From: Streptosporangium sp. NBC_01756
GTDB lineage: Bacteria > Actinomycetota > Actinomycetes > Streptosporangiales > Streptosporangiaceae
Direction: 5' to 3'
Length of the DNA stretch: 64,000 nucleotides
NCBI RefSeq assembly: GCF_035917975.1
Contig: NZ_CP109130.1
Coordinates: forward strand, 8,556,001 to 8,620,000
Below the pieces are notes generated by a model. The model did not search any database. It saw only the letters and a program-made list of their open reading frames with translations, and was not told the DNA's origin. The translations under genes were made by a program, and so were the position numbers. Within the stretch, counting starts at the first letter, position 1. Each line of letters opens with the position of its first letter. Below are positions 16,547-55,087 of the stretch, piece after piece.

Positions 16547-17971
16547 ATGTTCGTGCGTAAACTCGCAGGCATCGGCCTGCTCGTGGCGACGGCGATCGCC
16601 TGGGGAGGACCGGCACCGGCCGCGCAGGCGGCCGACGTGCCCGTGGCCGGTGGCGTCTACCAGCTCAAGGTGACCAAGAGCGGCATGTGCCTGGATGTGG
16701 TGGGCGGCTCGAAGGACAACGGCGCGCTGTTGCAGCAGTGGGGCTGCACGGCCGATGCCTGGCAGCAGTTCACCGTCGTCTCCGCCGGGTCGGGGACCTA
16801 CACGATCCGCAACGTGAACAGCGGCCGGTGCCTCGATGTGCCGGATGGGGCGGCCACCAGTGGACTGCGGCTGCAGCAGTGGGGGTGCGGTGACGGCACC
16901 AAGTCCAACCAGCAGTGGCGGTTCGTCGCCTCGGGCAGCGGAACGTACCAGGTCGTCAGCGCCGCCACCGGGCTGTGCATGAGTGATCAGGGCGCCTCCA
17001 CCACCTCCGGCGCCGCGATCATCCAGGAGACCTGTACGGCCAACACCAACAAGCAGTGGGCCTTCAACCCCGTGTCGAGCGGTAAGGCCACGGTGGCGGC
17101 GGACGGCTCCGGCACCTACCGGACCGTGCAGGCCGCCATCGACGCCGTGCCGACCGGAAACGCGAGCCGGGTGACGATCACCATCGCGCCCGGCACATAC
17201 CGGGAGATCGTGCGGATTCCCAGCAACAAGCCCTATGTCACGCTCCAGGGGCTCGGTTCTTCGGCGAACCAGACTGTTATCGTTAACAATCACTATGCGG
17301 GCGAATACGGGACGTCCGGCAGCGCGACCGCGTTCGTCGACGGCCATGACTTCGTCGCCACCAACCTGACGATCTCCAACGACTTCAACGAGGATCCGGC
17401 CGTCAGCGGCCACCAGGCGGTGGCGCTCAACCTGACCGCGGACCGGGCCCGGCTGACCAACGTGCGCCTGCTCGGTGACCAGGACACGTTCCTGGTCAAC
17501 AACTCGACCCGGGCCTACCTGTCGAACTCGTACGTGGAGGGCACCGTCGACTTCATCTTCGGCGGCGGCACCATCGTCTTCGACAACTGCGACATCTACG
17601 AAAAGCGCAGCACCGGCGGTCCGATCACCGCGGCGAGCACGGACGCCGCGAAAACCTACGGCTTCCTGTTCTACAAATCCAGGATTTCCGGAGCGTCCGC
17701 GACAGGCAGTACCAGCCTGGGTCGCCCCTGGTACCCCAACGCCCAGGTGCTCTACCGGGAGTCCACGCTGGGCTCCCTGATCAACACCGCCCAGCCGTGG
17801 ACTGACATGTCCGCCAACTCCTGGAAGAACGCCCGCTTCTTCGAGTACAAGAACACCGGGGCAGGAGCCGGGACGAACTCCAACCGGCCGCAGCTCGCCG
17901 ACGCGCAAGCTCCGAACTACACCCCGCAGAAGTATCTGGCCGGGTCCGACGGCTGGAACCCCGTTGGCTGA
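16547..17971 (+). CDS. Secreted pectinesterase (CE8) with N-terminal ricin-type lectin domain (CBM13)
   Basis: A 474-residue exported enzyme. ATG at 16547 follows GGAAGGGAG. Residues 1 to about 30 are a signal peptide ending AAQA-ADV. Residues about 33-175 form a beta-trefoil with three QQW repeats. The CE8 beta-helix follows, with GTYRTVQAAIDAVP, GTYREIV, GHQAVAL (oxyanion-hole Gln), GDQDTFL and VDFIFGGG (the two catalytic aspartates), and LGRPWYP with the substrate arginine. It removes methyl esters from plant pectin so that the neighbouring pectate lyase can cut the chain. The lectin domain should hold it on plant cell wall. Confidence 0.96.
   Translation: MFVRKLAGIGLLVATAIAWGGPAPAAQAADVPVAGGVYQLKVTKSGMCLDVVGGSKDNGALLQQWGCTADAWQQFTVVSAGSGTYTIRNVNSGRCLDVPDGAATSGLRLQQWGCGDGTKSNQQWRFVASGSGTYQVVSAATGLCMSDQGASTTSGAAIIQETCTANTNKQWAFNPVSSGKATVAADGSGTYRTVQAAIDAVPTGNASRVTITIAPGTYREIVRIPSNKPYVTLQGLGSSANQTVIVNNHYAGEYGTSGSATAFVDGHDFVATNLTISNDFNEDPAVSGHQAVALNLTADRARLTNVRLLGDQDTFLVNNSTRAYLSNSYVEGTVDFIFGGGTIVFDNCDIYEKRSTGGPITAASTDAAKTYGFLFYKSRISGASATGSTSLGRPWYPNAQVLYRESTLGSLINTAQPWTDMSANSWKNARFFEYKNTGAGAGTNSNRPQLADAQAPNYTPQKYLAGSDGWNPVG
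16639..16794 (+). repeat. Exact 156-bp direct repeat, copy 1 (lectin-domain segment)
   Basis: Identical base for base to 18119-18274. It encodes the first trefoil repeat of the CBM13 domain. The lectin domains diverge on both sides, which points to recent gene conversion or duplication rather than selection on codons. Confidence 0.97.
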
Positions 17972-18011: not shown

Positions 18012-19475
18012 ATGCGTGTCTTGAACGTCCGCGCTCGTGCCGCCCGGGTGGCCGTCTTCGCCGTCCTCGCCGTGCTGACCTCGCTCGGGGTCGCGATCTC
18101 TCCCGCGCAGGCGGCCACGCCCGTGGCCGGTGGCGTCTACCAGCTCAAGGTGACCAAGAGCGGCATGTGCCTGGATGTGGTGGGCGGCTCGAAGGACAAC
18201 GGCGCGCTGTTGCAGCAGTGGGGCTGCACGGCCGATGCCTGGCAGCAGTTCACCGTCGTCTCCGCCGGGTCGGGCGTCTACAACCTGGTCAACGTCAACA
18301 GCGGACGCTGCGTCGACGTCCCCGGCAGCTCCACGACCTCCGGCGTGCGGCTGCAGCAGTGGGGATGCGGCGACGGCACCAAGCCCAACCAGCAGTGGCG
18401 CCTGACCGCATCCGGCAGCGGCACCTACCAGATCATCAATGTGGCCAGCGGCCTGTGCATGAGCGACCAGGGCGCCTCCACCACCTCCGGCGCCGCGATC
18501 ATCCAGGAGACCTGCACGGCCAACACCAACAAGCAATGGCTGTTCGCCCCGGTTTCCGGCAGCGGCAGAACCTGGTCGAACACCGCCGACGGTTTCGCCG
18601 CCACCAGCGGCGACGGTCTGACGACCACCACCGGCGGCGCGGCCGGCGCCACTGTCACCGTCACCACCTATGCCGATCTGGTCAAGTACGCCACCGCCGG
18701 CGCCCCCTACGTCATCAAGGTCGGCGGTGCGATCACCGTCACGCCGTACGGTACCGAGATCAAGGTCGCCTCCAACAAGACCATCCTCGGCGTCGGCACC
18801 AAGGGCCACATCGTCAACGGCGGCTTCTTCCTCGGCGCCGGCGTGAGCAACGTCATCATCCGCAACCTGACCATCCGCGACACCCGCATGGCCGACGACG
18901 ATCCCGACGACAAGACCTATGACTACGACGGCATCCAGATGGACACCGCCCACCACGTCTGGATCGACCACAACACCATCACCCGGATGAACGACGGCCT
19001 GATCGACAGCCGCAAGGACACCAGCTACCTCACCGTGTCCTGGAACGTCCTGTCGGAGAACAACAAGTCCTTCGGCATCGGCTGGACCGACAACGTCACA
19101 GCCCGCATGACGATCCACCACAACTGGATCCACGACACCAACCAGCGCAACCCCAGCACCGACAACGTCGCCTACGCGCACCTCTACAACAACTACCTGC
19201 AGAACATCGCCTCGTACGGCAACTACTCGCGCGGCGCCACCAAGATGGTGATCGAGAACAGCTACTACGACACCGTCAAAGACCCCTACTATCCCGACTC
19301 CACCGCGCAGCTTCGGCAGAGCGGCAGCATCGTGGTCAACTGCACCGGCAACCAGAGCACCAACGGCTCGGCCTTCAACCCGAGTTCGTTCTACTCCTAC
19401 ACCCTCGACCCGGCCGCCGACGTACCGTCCCTCCTCAGGACGTACTCGGGGCCCCAGGCCGACATCGGCACCTGA
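18012..19475 (+). CDS. Secreted pectate lyase (PL1) with N-terminal ricin-type lectin domain (CBM13)
   Basis: A 487-residue exported enzyme starting 40 bases after the pectinesterase stop; ATG at 18012 follows GAAGGA. A Sec signal (to about residue 34, ending AQA-ATP) precedes a CBM13 trefoil nearly identical to the one in the pectinesterase. The lyase domain shows the PL1 signature VWIDHNTITRMNDGLIDSRK, with calcium-binding acids around DYDGIQMD and DSRKD, and NQRNPSTDN towards the end. It cleaves de-esterified polygalacturonate by beta-elimination. The two genes form a pectin-degrading operon. Confidence 0.96.
   Translation: MRVLNVRARAARVAVFAVLAVLTSLGVAISPAQAATPVAGGVYQLKVTKSGMCLDVVGGSKDNGALLQQWGCTADAWQQFTVVSAGSGVYNLVNVNSGRCVDVPGSSTTSGVRLQQWGCGDGTKPNQQWRLTASGSGTYQIINVASGLCMSDQGASTTSGAAIIQETCTANTNKQWLFAPVSGSGRTWSNTADGFAATSGDGLTTTTGGAAGATVTVTTYADLVKYATAGAPYVIKVGGAITVTPYGTEIKVASNKTILGVGTKGHIVNGGFFLGAGVSNVIIRNLTIRDTRMADDDPDDKTYDYDGIQMDTAHHVWIDHNTITRMNDGLIDSRKDTSYLTVSWNVLSENNKSFGIGWTDNVTARMTIHHNWIHDTNQRNPSTDNVAYAHLYNNYLQNIASYGNYSRGATKMVIENSYYDTVKDPYYPDSTAQLRQSGSIVVNCTGNQSTNGSAFNPSSFYSYTLDPAADVPSLLRTYSGPQADIGT
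18119..18274 (+). repeat. Exact 156-bp direct repeat, copy 2 (lectin-domain segment)
   Basis: Second copy of the 156-bp repeat, inside the pectate lyase gene. A further almost identical stretch of about 80 bases (around 16978-17060 and 18458-18540) encodes the end of both lectin domains, with a more diverged middle between them. Confidence 0.97.
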
Positions 19476-42070: not shown

Positions 42071-47560
<5,490 letters not shown>

Positions 47561-49763: not shown

Positions 49764-50330
49764 ATGCGCGACCATCCCCCTCGACCGGCCGCTGTGACGC
49801 GGCGGACCATGCTCCGCGCGTCGGGCGCGGCAGGCTCCACTCTGATCATCGGTATGGCTCTGCCCACCCCTGCCGCCGCCGCTGCCGACGAGGCGTTGTC
49901 GCCCCAGCAGCGGGAGATGGTGCTGCAGGTGGCCAAGGCCGGAGCGATCTACCCGATCGAGGTCCCGAGCTTCGGCGAGCGCGGTACGGCGAGCAGCCGT
50001 GTCACCGCCTCCCGGCTCAAGGACGCCGAGGTCAGGCTGCAACCGGCCCGGCTGGCGGCGGTCCGCACCGGGGCGGACCTCCTGATCTCCCAGGGCCTCC
50101 TGGCCGCGCCACGTCCGGCGCTGCTCGCGGGCATCGGCCGGGCCGCCGCCACGGCGGCGCCCGCTGAGCGGCAGGCCCTGATCGCGGTGGCCGCACTGGG
50201 CGCGGCCACCGTCTCCCGCCATCTCGACCCCGCCTCCGACAGTCCCGCGACCGTGTGGATCGGCGGACTGGCTCACCTGCACGACCGCGGTATGCAGCCC
50301 AGCATCCTGCGGCACCTGGAGACCCGATGA
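49764..50330 (+). CDS. Tat-exported protein of unknown function
   Basis: A 188-residue protein with a twin-arginine signal (TRRTMLRASG, then a hydrophobic stretch to PTPAAAAA, about residue 40). The mature part is helical and alanine-rich: LSPQQREMVLQVAKAGAIYP, then ALIAVAALGAATVSRHLDP. I see no known domain or cysteines. It is the first gene of the operon and overlaps the protease gene by ATGA. It might be a partner or substrate of that protease (inference). Confidence 0.7.
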   Translation: MRDHPPRPAAVTRRTMLRASGAAGSTLIIGMALPTPAAAAADEALSPQQREMVLQVAKAGAIYPIEVPSFGERGTASSRVTASRLKDAEVRLQPARLAAVRTGADLLISQGLLAAPRPALLAGIGRAAATAAPAERQALIAVAALGAATVSRHLDPASDSPATVWIGGLAHLHDRGMQPSILRHLETR

Positions 50331-51898
50331 ACCTCAACCAGGACACCCAGGCCCGGCTGCACCGGGGCAAGCGGAAGATCCTCGACGACTTCGGCGCCGA
50401 TCCCAACGTCACCGGCGCCGGCATCGGCTTCCGCCGCCGCGACGGACAGTGGACCGATGAGCCCGCGGTCGTGGTCCTGGTCGCCAAGAAGCGCCCCGAG
50501 GCTCTCGTGTCCAATCGCCGGCTGCTGCCGAGAACCGTCGAGGTGGACGGGAGCCCCTGCGAAGTCGACGTGATCGAGGCCGGCCCGTTCCGCATGGGCC
50601 GCGTCAGCGATCCCGCACGGGAGGTGACGCCGGCGGCCGTCGTGGGGGTAACCGGACGCATGCGGCCGCCACGGCCGGGCTGCAGCATCTCCAACCCCCT
50701 GGACGGCGACACTGCGGGGACACTCGGGCTGTTCGTGCTTGACAAGACGGACGGCACGGTGTGCCTGATGTCCAACAACCACGTGATGGCCCGCATGGGC
50801 AAGGGCGTCAAAGGCGAGAAGATCACCCAGCCGGGGGTCCACGACGGCGGTACGGCGGCGAAGGACACGATCGCCACGCTGAAGCGCTGGGTCCCCATCA
50901 CCACGGCCGGCACGAAGATCGACGCCGCCATCGCCCAGCTCGTCGACCAGATGAACCTGTCCCTGCAGCCCGCTCTCGACCGCATGCCCCCGCTGGGGGT
51001 CAAGCACCCGGCCGTCGGCATCTTCACCGGCGGTGACGACTACGGGACCGGCGTGATCACCAGGATCGACCTCGCGCTCACCGCTCTCAACGTGGTGCCC
51101 GCCATTGCCGCCCCGGACGGCAGGGTGGCGGCCGCTCCTCCTGAGGCGGTGAAGGCCCCCGAGCCGTTCATGAACATCGAGAAGGTGGGCCGGACCTCGG
51201 GCTACACCTCCAGCATGATCACCGCCATCGGCGTCGAGTCGGTCATCCTGACCCCCCTCGGGATGGTCCTCTACACCGATCTCGCCCTCACCGATCGCTT
51301 CGGCCTCGCCGGCGACTCCGGATCGGTGGTGTTCCACGGCGGCGAGGGCAACACGCTGGTCGAGCCCGAAAATCAGAGTTCGTGCCCGCTCCTCGGGAGC
51401 ATCGGGAGTTATTACGGCTTGCCGCTGACCGGGGACAACGACCTCGCCGACGACCTCCGGGACAACTTCCTCGCCCAGAGCCTGGTCGGCAGGCTCCTGA
51501 TCCGCATCCCCTACATCAACCAGCAGTCGGTGATCGACCGGCTGCAGGGAAAGCAGGCCACGGGGAACGAGCGCTCCTACGCCTCGCAGTACTACGAGAA
51601 GTACCACGACTTCATGGCCACCGTGCTGGCCGACCCGAACTCGACCGCCGTCGTCACGCAGGAGAACCTCGACGACGCCGCCTTCGTCATCTACGGCCTG
51701 GCCCAGTCGGTGCTGACGCCGGAGGAGGCCCAGGTCGCCTACACCCTCCTTCAGGAGGCACTGCTGCCCACCCTGGGCATGAACCGCCGCCAGGTCCTGG
51801 AGTATATGAACGGCCATGACCTGTACACGCTCGTCTACGACGAGATCGCCAAGGTGCCCACCATCGAGACGAACGGCCCCATCGAACTACCGCGATGA
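50327..51898 (+). CDS. Trypsin-fold serine protease, cytoplasmic by sequence
   Basis: A 523-residue protein without a signal peptide. A plausible catalytic triad is His152 in MSNNHVMAR, Asp199 in KIDAAIAQL and Ser331 in FGLAGDSGSVVFHG, in the order and spacing of chymotrypsin-fold proteases. The N-terminal 100 residues (VTGAGIGFRRRDG, PAVVVLVAKKRP) resemble the start of bacterial trypsin-like proteins annotated only as hypothetical, and the C-terminal 170 residues are helical. ATG at 50327 overlaps the previous stop, and its stop overlaps the prenyl synthase start. Its partner or target is unknown. Confidence 0.72.
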   Translation: MNLNQDTQARLHRGKRKILDDFGADPNVTGAGIGFRRRDGQWTDEPAVVVLVAKKRPEALVSNRRLLPRTVEVDGSPCEVDVIEAGPFRMGRVSDPAREVTPAAVVGVTGRMRPPRPGCSISNPLDGDTAGTLGLFVLDKTDGTVCLMSNNHVMARMGKGVKGEKITQPGVHDGGTAAKDTIATLKRWVPITTAGTKIDAAIAQLVDQMNLSLQPALDRMPPLGVKHPAVGIFTGGDDYGTGVITRIDLALTALNVVPAIAAPDGRVAAAPPEAVKAPEPFMNIEKVGRTSGYTSSMITAIGVESVILTPLGMVLYTDLALTDRFGLAGDSGSVVFHGGEGNTLVEPENQSSCPLLGSIGSYYGLPLTGDNDLADDLRDNFLAQSLVGRLLIRIPYINQQSVIDRLQGKQATGNERSYASQYYEKYHDFMATVLADPNSTAVVTQENLDDAAFVIYGLAQSVLTPEEAQVAYTLLQEALLPTLGMNRRQVLEYMNGHDLYTLVYDEIAKVPTIETNGPIELPR

Positions 51899-52863
51899 CG
51901 ACCACCGCCACTGATTCCGTACCGCCCGGTTCTATGCCCGATTTCACCTCCCAGGTGACCGACCGGCTCCTCCGCCTGGCCGATGGCCTGCCGGAGCCGG
52001 TCCGGGCATCGGTGCGTACGCTCGTCGCCGGGCCGGGCAAGTTCGTCCGACCACGGCTGCTGGCCGCCGGCGCGGGCTTCGGCACGGCCGATCCCGGCCG
52101 GCTGGTGCGCCTGGGCGCCCTGGTGGAACTGATCCACCTGGCCTCGCTCCTGCACGACGACGTCATCGACGAGGCGGAGACCCGCCGGGGAGCGCCGGCC
52201 GCGCACGCGGCCGTCGGCACCGAACAGGCCATGCTCGCCGGGCTGGCCTGCTTCGCGCTGGTGGGCACGGAGGCCGCCGATCTCGGAGAGGGCGTCGCCG
52301 GGGCCGTGAGCAGGACTGTCGCCAGGCTCGCCTATGGTGAGCTGCTCGACGTCGAGCGTGCCTTCGACACCGCCTTCCCCCTGCCCGCCTACCTGGAGCT
52401 CGTGCAGAGCAAGACCGCCGAGCTGTTCCGGCTCTGCTGCCTGCTCGGCGCCGCGGAGGTCCGGTCCGGCCCCGGGGAGGCAGACGCGCTCGTCCGGTTC
52501 GGCACGGCGCTCGGCGTCACGTTCCAGATCCTCGACGACTGCCTGGACCTGCGCCCGAGCCACTCCGGCAAGCCGGTCGGCACCGACCACGCGCTGGGCC
52601 TGTTCGGCGCCCCCACCCTGTACGCGCTGCGAGCGGACAGCGGCGGAGAACTTGCCACGCTGCTGCTGTCGCCGTCGTTCAGCGTCCGCGACATGCCCGA
52701 GGTGCACTCCCTCGTCAAGGCCCATGGCGGGTTGGAGGCCGCGGCACGGCTGGCCGCCGACTGGCACGACCAGGCGCTCGCCGCCCTGGACGAGCTACCC
52801 GCCGGTGGGCCCCGCGACCGCTTGGCCGCGCTCGCCGCCTCGCTCCTCCAGGCCCGCTCGTGA
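51895..52863 (+). CDS. Trans-polyprenyl diphosphate synthase
   Basis: A 322-residue enzyme of normal family size with all key motifs: GKFVRPRLL, the first aspartate-rich motif LLHDDVIDEAETRRG (Asp88, Asp89, Asp92), and the second FQILDDCLDL (Asp214, Asp215, Asp218). It condenses isopentenyl diphosphate with an allylic diphosphate to give a longer chain; the length cannot be read safely by eye. It overlaps both neighbours by four bases. The next gene encodes an inactive look-alike domain fused to a reductase, so the two may form one enzyme complex. Confidence 0.93.
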   Translation: MTTTATDSVPPGSMPDFTSQVTDRLLRLADGLPEPVRASVRTLVAGPGKFVRPRLLAAGAGFGTADPGRLVRLGALVELIHLASLLHDDVIDEAETRRGAPAAHAAVGTEQAMLAGLACFALVGTEAADLGEGVAGAVSRTVARLAYGELLDVERAFDTAFPLPAYLELVQSKTAELFRLCCLLGAAEVRSGPGEADALVRFGTALGVTFQILDDCLDLRPSHSGKPVGTDHALGLFGAPTLYALRADSGGELATLLLSPSFSVRDMPEVHSLVKAHGGLEAAARLAADWHDQALAALDELPAGGPRDRLAALAASLLQARS

Positions 52864-54881
52864 CCGCGCCGCTCGCCGCCGACGTGCTGATCGTCGGCGC
52901 GGGACCGGCCGGCGCGATCACCGCCGCCGAACTGGCCCGTCACGGCCTGCACGCCGTGCTGGCCGGAGAGGAGACCGGGGAGGCGGACTACGACCTCGTG
53001 CTCAGCGGCGCGGCCATGCGCGGTCTGGCATCCCTCGGCGCGCTGGAGGAGGTCGCCGCCCGCGTCGTCGACACTGTCGAGCTGCGGTTGGGGCAGGGCG
53101 CCGGCCATGTGCTGCCCGAGGCCGTGAACGCCGCGTGCGACCGGCGCCACCTCGTCGACGGACTCCGCCGGCTCGCCGTCACCGCCGGAGCCACCTGGTT
53201 GCCGGGCACGGTCACGGATCTGGAACGGCGGGAAGGCGCCTGGCACGCGTCGACCGGCGACACCACCGTGTCGGCACGCCATCTCGTGGTCGCGACCGGA
53301 GCTCCTTCGGGCGGCACGCCGCACGCCACCGGCCTGCTGTGCGCGCAACGGTACAGCGGGGTGAACCTGACCGCGTCGATCGTGCTGGCCCTGCCCGCGC
53401 CGCGCACCATCGACCCGGCCGAGCGGCCGACGTGTGTGTGGGCGGTCCCGGGAGCTCAGGCGGGCACCTGCACGATCGGCGCCTCCAGGATCGGCTCTGC
53501 CGACCCTGACGAACTCCTCGAAACCGCCCGGGCCGTCCTCGCCGAGGGGGACCAGCGCTTCGCCGGGGCCGTTCCCGCCGGTCCGCTGGTCACCGGAGTC
53601 CTCAACAGCGGTTTCGCCCCCGAGCACAGCGTCCGCGACGGGCGGCTCCTGGTCGGCGACGCGGCCGGACTGGTCAACCCTTTCACCGGCGAAGGGCTCA
53701 GCTACGCCGTGCAGAGCGCCCTGCTGGCCGCCCGCGCCATCGCAGCGCATCCGGACGATCCGGACGCGGCCGGGCGAGCGTACACGCGCCGGCTGTCCGC
53801 GACGTTCGTCGGATATTTCGAGACGGCGACGCACGCCGCCCGGCGCTACCATCTGGCCTGGCGGGTCCTCGTGGCCACGGCCGACGACGAGCGGCCCGTC
53901 TCGGCCAAGCTCCGGCGGGCCGTGCTGACGCCGGATGGTTTCTCCGGGCTGACGGCCGCCGATCTGATGCCGCTGCCCGCACCTGATGTGGCGCTCCTCG
54001 GGCCGTTCCTGCTCGCCTGCGACGAGGTCGCGGTCAGCACCGTCCGCAAGGAATGGCCGTTCATCGCCCGCCTGCTGATCGCCGGAGAGCATTCCCCGCA
54101 CCAGCGGCTGCGCCCCGCCGCGCCGTTCTTCGCCGCCTTGCTGGCCGGTGGAAACCCACCCGACACCGCTTTCGTCACCCTCGCCGCCGCGATCGAGCTC
54201 GCCACCCTCGGGGCGCTGGCCTTCCTCGGCCCGATGCCCCCGCGCGCGGCACCGGGCAGGAGGGTGGACTGGGCCGTCGCCAGCACTGTGCTGGCCGGCG
54301 ACTTCCTCCTCGCGCAGGCATCACGACTGGTGGCGGCCTCGGCTCCGGAGGTGTCGTGGTCGTTCGCGGACTGGCTGGGCGAGCTCGCCGCGCTCCGGTC
54401 CGCCAGGATCGACCCGGCCGGGCGGTCACGGGCCGGGGAGGTGTTCGCCGCGCTGCTGGAGTTCCCCTCCCGCATCGGGGCGCAGCTCGGCGGAGCACCG
54501 CCCGAGACCATCCGGGCGCTGCGGGACTTCGGCAACCACAGCGGGCACGCCTTCCTGCACGCCGAAGAGGTCCTGGCGGTGCGCGGCGAGCGGACCCGGC
54601 TGGATGTCACACTGCCCGGAATGCTCTCCGGGCGGCTCTCGGCCATCCCCGACATCCTCCCGGAGGTCACCGGCGGTCTTCTCGCCGGTGACCCCGACGC
54701 ACGATCGAGAGCCCTGGACCTTGCCGTGACCGCTTGCCGTGACGCCCACCGGGCGGCCCTGGGCGCCCTTGAGAACGTCGCGCACCCGGTGTCCGCGCGC
54801 ATCCTGGAGAGCTTCGTCGCGACTGTGTGCGCACCCTGCGCACCGGCACCGGCACCGGCACCGTCTCCGGCCGGCGCGTGA
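52860..54881 (+). CDS. Fusion: geranylgeranyl-reductase-type flavoprotein + non-catalytic prenyl-synthase-fold domain
   Basis: A 673-residue protein. Residues 1 to about 380 are an FAD oxidoreductase of the geranylgeranyl reductase family: VLIVGAGPAGAITAAELARH (Gly13, Gly15, Gly18) and VGDAAGLVNPFTGEGLSYAV. From about residue 395 the sequence follows the prenyl-synthase fold: RLRPAAPFFAALLAG, AIELATLGALA, VASTVLAGDFLLAQASRL. But the first motif HDDVID is replaced by FLGPMP (455-460), the second reads FLHAEEVLA (about 565-573), and the GK of the GKxxRP motif is lost. So this domain cannot bind the Mg-diphosphate cluster and is probably a scaffold or regulatory half. A likely role is to reduce prenyl chains made by the neighbouring synthase. 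The start GTG overlaps the synthase stop. Confidence 0.88.
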   Translation: MTAPLAADVLIVGAGPAGAITAAELARHGLHAVLAGEETGEADYDLVLSGAAMRGLASLGALEEVAARVVDTVELRLGQGAGHVLPEAVNAACDRRHLVDGLRRLAVTAGATWLPGTVTDLERREGAWHASTGDTTVSARHLVVATGAPSGGTPHATGLLCAQRYSGVNLTASIVLALPAPRTIDPAERPTCVWAVPGAQAGTCTIGASRIGSADPDELLETARAVLAEGDQRFAGAVPAGPLVTGVLNSGFAPEHSVRDGRLLVGDAAGLVNPFTGEGLSYAVQSALLAARAIAAHPDDPDAAGRAYTRRLSATFVGYFETATHAARRYHLAWRVLVATADDERPVSAKLRRAVLTPDGFSGLTAADLMPLPAPDVALLGPFLLACDEVAVSTVRKEWPFIARLLIAGEHSPHQRLRPAAPFFAALLAGGNPPDTAFVTLAAAIELATLGALAFLGPMPPRAAPGRRVDWAVASTVLAGDFLLAQASRLVAASAPEVSWSFADWLGELAALRSARIDPAGRSRAGEVFAALLEFPSRIGAQLGGAPPETIRALRDFGNHSGHAFLHAEEVLAVRGERTRLDVTLPGMLSGRLSAIPDILPEVTGGLLAGDPDARSRALDLAVTACRDAHRAALGALENVAHPVSARILESFVATVCAPCAPAPAPAPSPAGA

Positions 54882-54937: not shown

Positions 54938-55087
54938 ATGTTCCTGTCCGACCTCTTCGTCGACAGCGCCCGGCTGCCCGGCCCGCTGCAGGCCGTCGCC
55001 GCGTGGAATCCCGTCTCCACCATCGTCCGTGCGGCATACGATCTGTTCGGCAACGCCGATCCCGCCACGGCCGTCTCAGGCGCGTGA
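54938..55087 (+). pseudogene. C-terminal relic of an ABC-2 type permease
   Basis: A 49-codon frame reads MFLSDLFVDSARLPGPLQAV, AAWNPVSTIVRAAYDLFGN. The run from the proline-glycine pair to the WNPVS helix is how the last extracellular loop and helix of DrrB-type exporters look. All earlier membrane helices are missing, so it is a fragment left by a deletion. It follows the fusion gene by 56 bases. Confidence 0.65.

What the first reader, a model, noticed from the sequence alone, without database searches (positions are those of the whole stretch)
49764..54881. Four-gene coupled operon joins a prenyl diphosphate synthase to a reductase fused with an inactive synthase domain
Seen directly: four genes with stop/start overlaps (ATGA or GTGA). 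The third has complete DDxxD motifs. The fourth is a geranylgeranyl-reductase-type flavoprotein whose C-terminal 280 residues align with the synthase (for example ELIHLASLLHDDVID against ELATLGALAFLGPMP), with both aspartate-rich motifs replaced. Known: some prenyl synthases work as a catalytic plus non-catalytic pair, and GGR-family enzymes saturate prenyl chains. Inference: the fusion docks the reductase on the synthase through a heterodimer and makes a partly saturated polyprenyl product. The trypsin-like protease and Tat protein in the same unit have no obvious place in this and may mark a new system.
Basis: partly seen in the sequence, partly recalled or inferred. Interest (0 to 1): 0.75.

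Follow-up and report, generated by a model that had tools for sequence, protein, structure and literature searches.

The report
Protease–prenyl synthase–reductase operon with dead synthase
A rare but conserved set of actinobacterial genes pairs an isoprenoid-chain-building enzyme with a flavin reductase that carries a dead copy of the same enzyme as its tail, and keeps a protease with them, which suggests a new kind of docked enzyme complex for making a modified lipid.

Summary
Four genes (49764-54881) overlap stop-to-start. The third is a trans-polyprenyl synthase with both Asp-rich motifs. The fourth is a GG-reductase-superfamily flavoprotein whose C-terminal ~280 residues are a synthase homologue without them (profile E 3e-14 against solved synthases; a plasmid relative passes the Pfam cutoff). 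The dead domain is no wreck: the first motif is missing in 21 of 21 fusions seen, and dN/dS is about as low as in the live enzymes. The unit is rare (14 of 297 genomes of its order; 3 of 392 of a Streptomyces-like genus) but coherent: all 14 have the NARROW-LEAF-1-like protease, and 21 of 21 fusion loci carry the live synthase. In two loci, one on a Rhodococcus plasmid, a subtilase takes the protease's place, so a protease seems functionally required. Most likely the dead domain docks the reductase on the synthase to make a partly hydrogenated polyprenyl chain; the protease's role is unknown. No interface, product or activity was tested, and the window-type reductase lacks a cysteine typical of archaeal GGRs. 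Closest precedents: HexA/HexB and rice GRP-GGPPS-GGR.

The parts
49764..50330 (+). gene 1: Tat-signal protein, 188 aa; mature part a confident helical bundle without a known fold match
   Evidence: RR leader read by eye (PF10518 only 0.095); AF2 mean pLDDT 83.2; Foldseek pdb best E 1.4; homologues in 15 of 21 fusion loci
50327..51898 (+). gene 2: NARROW LEAF 1-like serine protease, 523 aa; no signal peptide seen by eye
   Evidence: PF25608 5e-10, above cutoff; solved NAL1 E 2.3e-18; His152 and Asp199 in 15 of 15, Ser331 in 14 of 15 aligned relatives
51895..52863 (+). gene 3: trans-polyprenyl diphosphate synthase, 322 aa
   Evidence: PF00348 3.1e-48; first DDxxD in 21 of 21 relatives, second in 19 of 21, DDxxE in L048 and L049
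52156..52170 (+). first Asp-rich motif of gene 3 (DDVID)
52534..52548 (+). second Asp-rich motif of gene 3 (DDCLD)
52860..54881 (+). gene 4: GG-reductase-superfamily flavoprotein fused to a non-catalytic synthase domain, 673 aa
   Evidence: TIGR02032 4e-25, below cutoff; AF2 pLDDT 81.8, pTM 0.77
52860..53930 (+). FAD/reductase domain of gene 4 (residues 1-357)
   Evidence: best solved match 3oz2 digeranylgeranylglycerophospholipid reductase 1.4e-25
53979..54827 (+). dead synthase domain of gene 4 (residues 374-656)
54225..54242 (+). place of the lost first Asp-rich motif (LGPMPP)
54564..54578 (+). place of the degenerate second motif (EEVLA; first position Glu in 17 of 18, Asp in L154)
50327..50330 (+). 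ATGA overlap genes 1/2
51895..51898 (+). ATGA overlap genes 2/3
52860..52863 (+). GTGA overlap genes 3/4; a 4-nt overlap here in 12 of 17 colinear loci

Best explanation
A conserved isoprenoid-lipid enzyme module. Gene 3 builds an all-trans polyprenyl diphosphate. The C-terminal half of gene 4, a synthase fold that lost catalysis long ago, acts as a non-catalytic partner (inferred: by pairing with gene 3 through the usual synthase dimer surface), which holds the FAD domain close to the growing or finished chain so that it is partly hydrogenated. A serine protease is a fixed part of the module and probably processes or gates one of its members or a target protein; this step is unexplained. Gene 1 is an exported helper of the Streptosporangiaceae version only. 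Shown: homology, loss of motifs, common origin of the dead domains, purifying selection, co-conservation, protease replacement. Inferred: docking, reduction, product, protease target.
For: Dead domain is a synthase fold (relative L154 PF00348 E 8.7e-21, 74.7 bits against cutoff 27). The 18 C-domains in the tree are separated from the 40 other synthases with UFBoot 100. dN/dS over 13 pairs: dead domain not above the reductase domain in 13 of 13, below gene 3 in 10, equal in 1, above in 2. Gene 3 relative in 21 of 21 fusion loci, including four where gene 4 lies in a separate opposite operon with gene 3 about 4.8 kb away (L052-L055), and three genomes with two sets each. Four-nt overlap of genes 3/4 in 12 of 17 colinear loci. 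Gene 2 (E up to 1e-100) in 14 of 14 order genomes with the fusion; 14 of 15 genomes with gene 2 have the fusion. Subtilase in the same position in L100 and L154. Gene 3 has Ala at the fifth place before the first motif, as do several of the longer-chain-type synthases of these genomes (THLATLYHDD), not the Phe of the FSLLHDD ones; reading this as a longer chain is recalled.
Against: No complex was modelled. The dead domain could pair with itself. The distance correlation of gene 3 with the dead domain (0.97) is no higher than with the reductase domain (0.97), so it shows common descent only. Conservation by helix does not single out the dimer helices (E 0.76, F 0.76, G 0.77, residues 400-406 0.92; that E and F form the interface is recalled). 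The presumed GGR cysteine is absent in 13 of 13 Streptosporangiaceae-type sequences (present in 5 of 5 divergent ones), and the full PxxxWxFP motif is in 2 of 18, so prenyl reduction is not assured. TIGR02032 scores 89 bits against a cutoff of 158.8. I saw no prenyl-acceptor enzyme conserved next to it in the neighbour lists, most of which were read by eye. One relative's protease has Ala for the catalytic Ser (L058), and in L057 the protease gene is on another contig.
Confidence: 0.55

Rival explanations
1. The dead domain is a lipid-binding or self-dimerising domain: it uses the old synthase tunnel to hold a finished polyprenyl chain for the fused reductase, without touching gene 3.
For: The synthase fold and several positions are kept; Arg418 is invariant in 14 aligned fusions and Glu569 too, although catalysis is gone. 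Gene 4 can be separated from gene 3 into another operon (L052-L055).
Against: Gene 3 is missing from none of 21 fusion loci, and genes 3/4 overlap by 4 nt in 12 of 17 colinear loci.
Confidence: 0.25
2. A protease-gated module of the kind seen in conflict systems: the protease cuts the fusion (or a partner) in response to a trigger and so switches a membrane-lipid activity on or off.
For: Protease class is exchanged (NAL1 type against subtilase) while synthase and fusion stay; the distribution is patchy and one copy is on a plasmid typed as mobilizable; a low-confidence stretch at 358-366 lies between the two domains. Precedent: trypsin-like and caspase proteases activating pro-nucleases, PMC12799240 (abstract and start of introduction seen).
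Against: No PADLOC match for genes 1-4; two conflict-system surveys hold no word beginning with prenyl or geranyl (PMC7159879, PMC8195603, word searches only); I saw no sensor or NTPase gene conserved beside it; a cleavage site was not looked for or shown.
Confidence: 0.15
3. An accessory menaquinone or carrier-lipid pathway: an extra synthase plus reductase that varies chain length and saturation, with protease and Tat protein as neighbours of no mechanistic weight.
For: A GGR paralogue of Archaeoglobus gives partly saturated octaprenyl menaquinone (PMC10821996, passages).
Against: The protease co-occurs in 14 of 14 genomes and in two loci is replaced by another protease rather than lost. The genome has another synthase and a GGR-type match about 16 kb apart that could serve quinones (inference).
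Confidence: 0.15

Closest known systems
Heteromeric trans-prenyl synthases (HexA/HexB, HepS/HepT, mint GPPS LSU/SSU)
   Same: A catalytic subunit with the Asp-rich motifs works with a second, regulatory subunit (PMC7839719, passages); that the second subunit lacks the motifs is recalled.
   Different: Here the dead partner is fused to a flavin reductase and the unit includes a protease.
Rice GRP-OsGGPPS1-GGR complex
   Same: A catalytically inactive synthase homologue heterodimerises with the live synthase and brings it to a complex with GGR (PMC9399743, passages citing Zhou 2017).
   Different: In plants these are separate proteins on thylakoids; here the inactive homologue and the reductase are one chain, in actinobacteria, with a protease.
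GG-reductase superfamily (archaeal GGR and relatives)
   Same: N-domain matches TIGR02032 and solved 3oz2; GxGxxG in 18 of 18.
   Different: Presumed catalytic cysteine lost in the window type, PxxxWxFP mostly degraded, and the extra C-terminal domain.
Plant NARROW LEAF 1 protease
   Same: Gene 2 shares its N-domain and the stretch around the catalytic Ser.
   Different: Bacterial gene cluster with lipid enzymes; no functional link is known to me.

Membership tests
trans-polyprenyl synthase (gene 3) | Pfam PF00348 above cutoff | tested here: met
   164.6 bits against 27
trans-polyprenyl synthase (gene 3) | two Asp-rich motifs | tested here: met
   window gene: both; relatives: first 21 of 21, second 19 of 21 with DDxxE in L048 and L049
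trans-polyprenyl synthase (C-domain of gene 4) | homologous fold | tested here: met
   relative L154 above Pfam cutoff; the window protein itself is below it (15.2 against 27)
trans-polyprenyl synthase (C-domain of gene 4) | two Asp-rich motifs | tested here: not met
   first motif absent in 21 of 21; second degenerate, nearest DEVLD in L154
non-catalytic subunit of a heteromeric synthase | dead homologue encoded with a live synthase | tested here: met
   21 of 21 loci
non-catalytic subunit of a heteromeric synthase | physical heterodimer that changes activity or chain length | not testable with these tools
geranylgeranyl reductase | TIGR02032 above curated cutoff | tested here: not met
   89.1 bits against 158.8
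geranylgeranyl reductase | GxGxxG | tested here: met
   18 of 18
geranylgeranyl reductase | PxxxWxFP and the Cys47 equivalent | tested here: not met
   full motif 2 of 18, its Trp 18 of 18; presumed Cys 0 of 13 in the window type, 5 of 5 in the divergent type
geranylgeranyl reductase | reduces prenyl chains | not testable with these tools
   needs enzyme assay
NAL1-like serine protease | PF25608 above cutoff and catalytic triad | tested here: met
   39.4 against 27; triad in the window protein and 14 of 15 aligned proteins
NAL1-like serine protease | NAL1 C-terminal domain PF25819 above cutoff | tested here: not met
   16.4 against 26.1
family 2 encapsulin cargo synthase | NF041169 above cutoff | tested here: not met
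   150.8 against 450, best NCBIfam hit of gene 3
family 2 encapsulin cargo synthase | encapsulin shell gene in the cluster | not tested
   no shell-protein model was run on the neighbours
known anti-phage defence systems | PADLOC model match | tested here: not met
   none for genes 1-4

The most novel reading that the evidence does not exclude
A new class of protease-gated lipid system: a live prenyl synthase docked to a reductase through a dead synthase domain, held in check or released by an interchangeable dedicated protease (NAL1 type or subtilase), spreading between actinobacteria and plasmids as a stress, development or conflict module.
Probability: 0.15. Interest if true: 0.85.

Novelty: new variant of a known kind. 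Interest (0 to 1): 0.62.

Why it matters
If the docking is real, this is a one-gene bacterial version of the plant trick of recruiting a synthase to a reductase with a dead synthase homologue, and it would give a compact system to study how prenyl chains are handed over and saturated. The exchange of the protease for an unrelated one while synthase and fusion stay points to a requirement for proteolysis beside an isoprenoid pathway; none of the papers listed by my searches described such a set (open-access library only).

Tried and rejected
Rejected: chance alignment of the C-domain. Rejected: decayed pseudogene domain (dN/dS; shared loss in 21 of 21). Considered and not adopted: encapsulin cargo (NF041169 below cutoff) and known defence system. 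Gene 1: fold search gave nothing significant, and its sequence profile only hits with E 0.33 or worse. The 150-aa protein of the subtilase version has no Pfam match and only one structure hit at E 0.28. Trees were discarded because some comparison synthases were read from the wrong strand or frame; one search replaces them. In one search monophyly of gene 3 itself is unresolved (supports 43-66 at the deep nodes), so whether the dead domain arose by duplication of gene 3 cannot be said; in both parts of the tree L100, L061, L093 and L099 fall apart from the rest, with supports of 88 (C-domains) and 66 (gene 3). Foldseek on the whole of gene 4 listed only FAD-domain type matches in the 50 rows shown of 1444. 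Helix-wise conservation did not single out the dimer helices.

L010 and L011 (weak, partial hits) and L062 (a distant GGR) were not used. L060 (G114) holds a broken remnant of gene 4 only (stops inside) and is not among the 21 loci. L056, L057 and L059 were left out of alignment A1 (gene start unclear, contig end, frame break). One search covers 18 of the 21 fusions; L056, L057, L059 were looked at for the motif. The protease table covers 15 of 18 NAL1-type proteases (not L048, L093, L099). The genome searches scored only 2 to 4 candidates per genome, so the counts are best taken as lower bounds.
Full report
WHAT IS THERE. The genome is one 9.0-Mb contig. Gene 1 is a 188-aa protein with a twin-arginine leader, read by eye. 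Gene 2 is a 523-aa serine protease related to plant NARROW LEAF 1: PF25608 E 5e-10, solved NAL1 structures E 2.3e-18; the NAL1 C-terminal model stays below its cutoff. Gene 3 is a polyprenyl synthase. Gene 4 joins a GG-reductase-superfamily FAD domain to a second synthase-like domain.

THE DEAD DOMAIN IS REAL AND MAINTAINED. A profile of 13 C-domains finds solved synthases at E 3e-14 (nonaprenyl synthase 9imq); the 60 rows shown of 61 are prenyl-synthase entries by name, apart from two rice proteins named only by locus. Profile against the gene 3 family gives probability 93% and E 3e-7. The relative on a Rhodococcus plasmid still passes the Pfam cutoff in this region (74.7 bits against 27); the window protein alone does not (15.2 bits). 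Of the catalytic positions of gene 3, in the 13 fusions compared, Lys49, Asp88, Asp89, Arg97, Lys173, Gln211, Asp218 and Lys226 are replaced, Asp92 is variable, Arg52 and Arg98 are kept, Asp214 is Glu and Asp215 is Asp or Glu. In more distant relatives the second site varies; L154 keeps DEVLD there. The first motif is absent in 21 of 21 fusions (18; L056, L057, L059). In the tree of 58 sequences the 18 C-domains (window, L045-L055, L057, L058, L061, L093, L099, L100) are separated from all live synthases with ultrafast bootstrap 100, so the loss is probably old and single. Yet its dN/dS is low: in the four closest comparisons around the window (W-L045, W-L046, W-L047, L046-L047) 0.19-0.24, against 0.24-0.38 for the reductase domain and 0.27-0.45 for gene 3. 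Over all 13 pairs computed it is not above the reductase domain in any, below gene 3 in 10, equal in 1 and above in 2. A non-catalytic role is therefore under selection.

THE UNIT IS RARE BUT COHERENT. In 297 genomes sampled from the order, 13 have a fusion at 52% identity or better over most of its length and one more (G253) a divergent one; a further genome (G114) has only a broken remnant (G253 anatomy). Strong gene 2 relatives (E up to 1e-100) occur in 15 of the 297: all 14 of those and G089; ten more genomes have only weak, partial matches. G089 has gene 2 with a 78-aa protein beside it and no synthase or fusion near. In a class sample the two-domain fusion is in 2 of 394 genomes, in the genus of the second (Streptomyces-like by size and commonness, my guess) in 3 of 392, and in a phylum sample in 1 of 396 at a strict threshold. 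Of 72,556 plasmid records, one has it. Only 2 to 4 candidates per genome were scored in these searches.

LOCUS BY LOCUS. Including the window I examined 21 fusion loci. Gene 3 lies with the fusion in 21 of 21, with the first motif in 21 and the full second motif in 19 (DDxxE in L048 and L049). A protease lies with them in 20; in L057 (G270) genes 1 and 2 sit together on another contig (L122). The protease is the NAL1 type in 18 and a subtilase in 2: L100 (G744; Peptidase_S8 4e-55) and L154 (Rhodococcus oxybenzonivorans pRB98; Peptidase_S8 1e-50). In both, the order is subtilase, a 150-aa protein (58% identical to each other), synthase, fusion. Gene 1 is present in 15 of 21 locally, all of the Streptosporangiaceae type, and on the second contig of G270; L093, L099, L100 and L154 have no gene 1 in the gene lists, and L061 has a different short protein that aligns poorly (26%). 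In L052-L055 genes 1-2-3 and gene 4 are in opposite operons of one cluster, genes 3 and 4 about 4.8 kb apart. Three genomes (G081, G237, G239) carry both a colinear and a split cluster, each with its own synthase; the colinear fusion of G081 (L059) is broken by a frame change. Genes 3 and 4 overlap by 4 nt in 12 of 17 colinear loci, by more in L058 and perhaps L056 (start uncertain), and do not overlap in L061, L093, L099.

HOW IT MOST LIKELY WORKS. Trans-prenyl synthases work as homodimers or as hetero-oligomers with a regulatory subunit (PMC7839719 passages). In rice a catalytically inactive synthase homologue (GRP) pairs with the live synthase and brings it to a complex with GGR (PMC9399743 passages). 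The present fusion looks like a one-chain bacterial counterpart: the dead domain pairs with gene 3 and the FAD domain reduces the chain. The Ala five places before the first motif is shared with some other synthases of these genomes (THLATLYHDD) and not with the Phe-bearing ones; that this means a longer chain is recalled. Homology, loss, selection and co-conservation are shown; docking, reduction and product are inference.

WHAT SPEAKS AGAINST IT. Nothing here shows an interface. Conservation by helix does not favour the dimer helices. The cysteine that is essential in the S. acidocaldarius GGR (PMC10821996 passages) has a presumed equivalent (KxCGD) in 5 of 5 divergent fusions but is missing in 13 of 13 window-type ones, and the full PxxxWxFP motif is in 2 of 18; the equivalence was not checked by aligning the archaeal enzyme. 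The same paper notes an active Archaeoglobus prenyl reductase without these motifs, so this weakens but does not exclude prenyl reduction. The L154 reductase has GAAAG for GDAAG, and the L058 protease has Ala for the catalytic Ser. I saw no prenyl-acceptor enzyme conserved beside the unit; most neighbours were read by eye, some with Pfam.

THE PROTEASE. Replacement of one protease class by another in the same operon position, seen in two loci, is the strongest sign that proteolysis belongs to the system. A parallel is the pro-nuclease systems whose activating protease can be trypsin-like or caspase-like (PMC12799240, abstract and start of introduction). This makes a gated enzyme thinkable, but no cleavage site or target is shown, and no PADLOC model matches genes 1-4.

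NOVELTY. Searches of the open-access library for a GGR-synthase fusion or for this gene combination listed no paper on it by title or abstract start (1 paper; 55: 0; 56: 4; 97: 3; 100: 8 shown of 43). Subscription papers are mostly not in that library. I therefore call it a new variant of a known kind: heteromeric synthase plus prenyl reductase, in a fused and protease-linked form not described in what I could search.

Noticed in passing
L052, L053, L054, L055: The split clusters put gene 4 in an operon with a secreted GDSL lipase carrying a PKD domain (Pfam on the L055 copy) and a membrane protein without Pfam match; in three of the four also an AMP-ligase, acyl-CoA dehydrogenase, two male-sterility/epimerase-type reductases, an ACP and PEP-utilising proteins. 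This looks like a larger lipid pathway.
   Followed up: partly
L050, L051, L056, L059, L061: Clusters flanked by families of small secreted proteins without Pfam match (C05, C06), and in L059/L061 by a ~700-aa secreted protein with sub-cutoff DUF6801 similarity; L051 and L059 also have proteins that look Mce-associated by eye, though the one scanned had no Pfam match.
   Followed up: partly
L093:13868-14101, L099:13452-13706, L123:9391-9627: 77-84 aa proteins related to each other (44-72%) lie beside the Streptomyces-type protease, once (L123) without synthase or fusion. By eye they resemble a free-standing NAL1 N-domain, but Pfam gave no match to the L093 one.
   Followed up: partly
L059: The reductase part of the fusion gene is broken by a frame change in this genome, real or assembly error.
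   Followed up: no
window 50327-51898: Gene 2 also matches a phage protein family annotated protease (phrog_20754, E 1e-39).
   Followed up: no
window 54938-55087: A 49-aa open frame just after the operon reads like the tail of an ABC-2 type permease (recalled, no search), perhaps a gene remnant.
   Followed up: no
window 42071-47560: One 1829-aa gene that starts like a biotin carboxylase (recalled, no search), long for a single chain.
   Followed up: no
window 16547-17971 and 18012-19475: Two adjacent predicted secreted proteins share the same stretch VAGGVYQLKVTKSGMCLDVVGGS, probably a tandem duplication.
   Followed up: no
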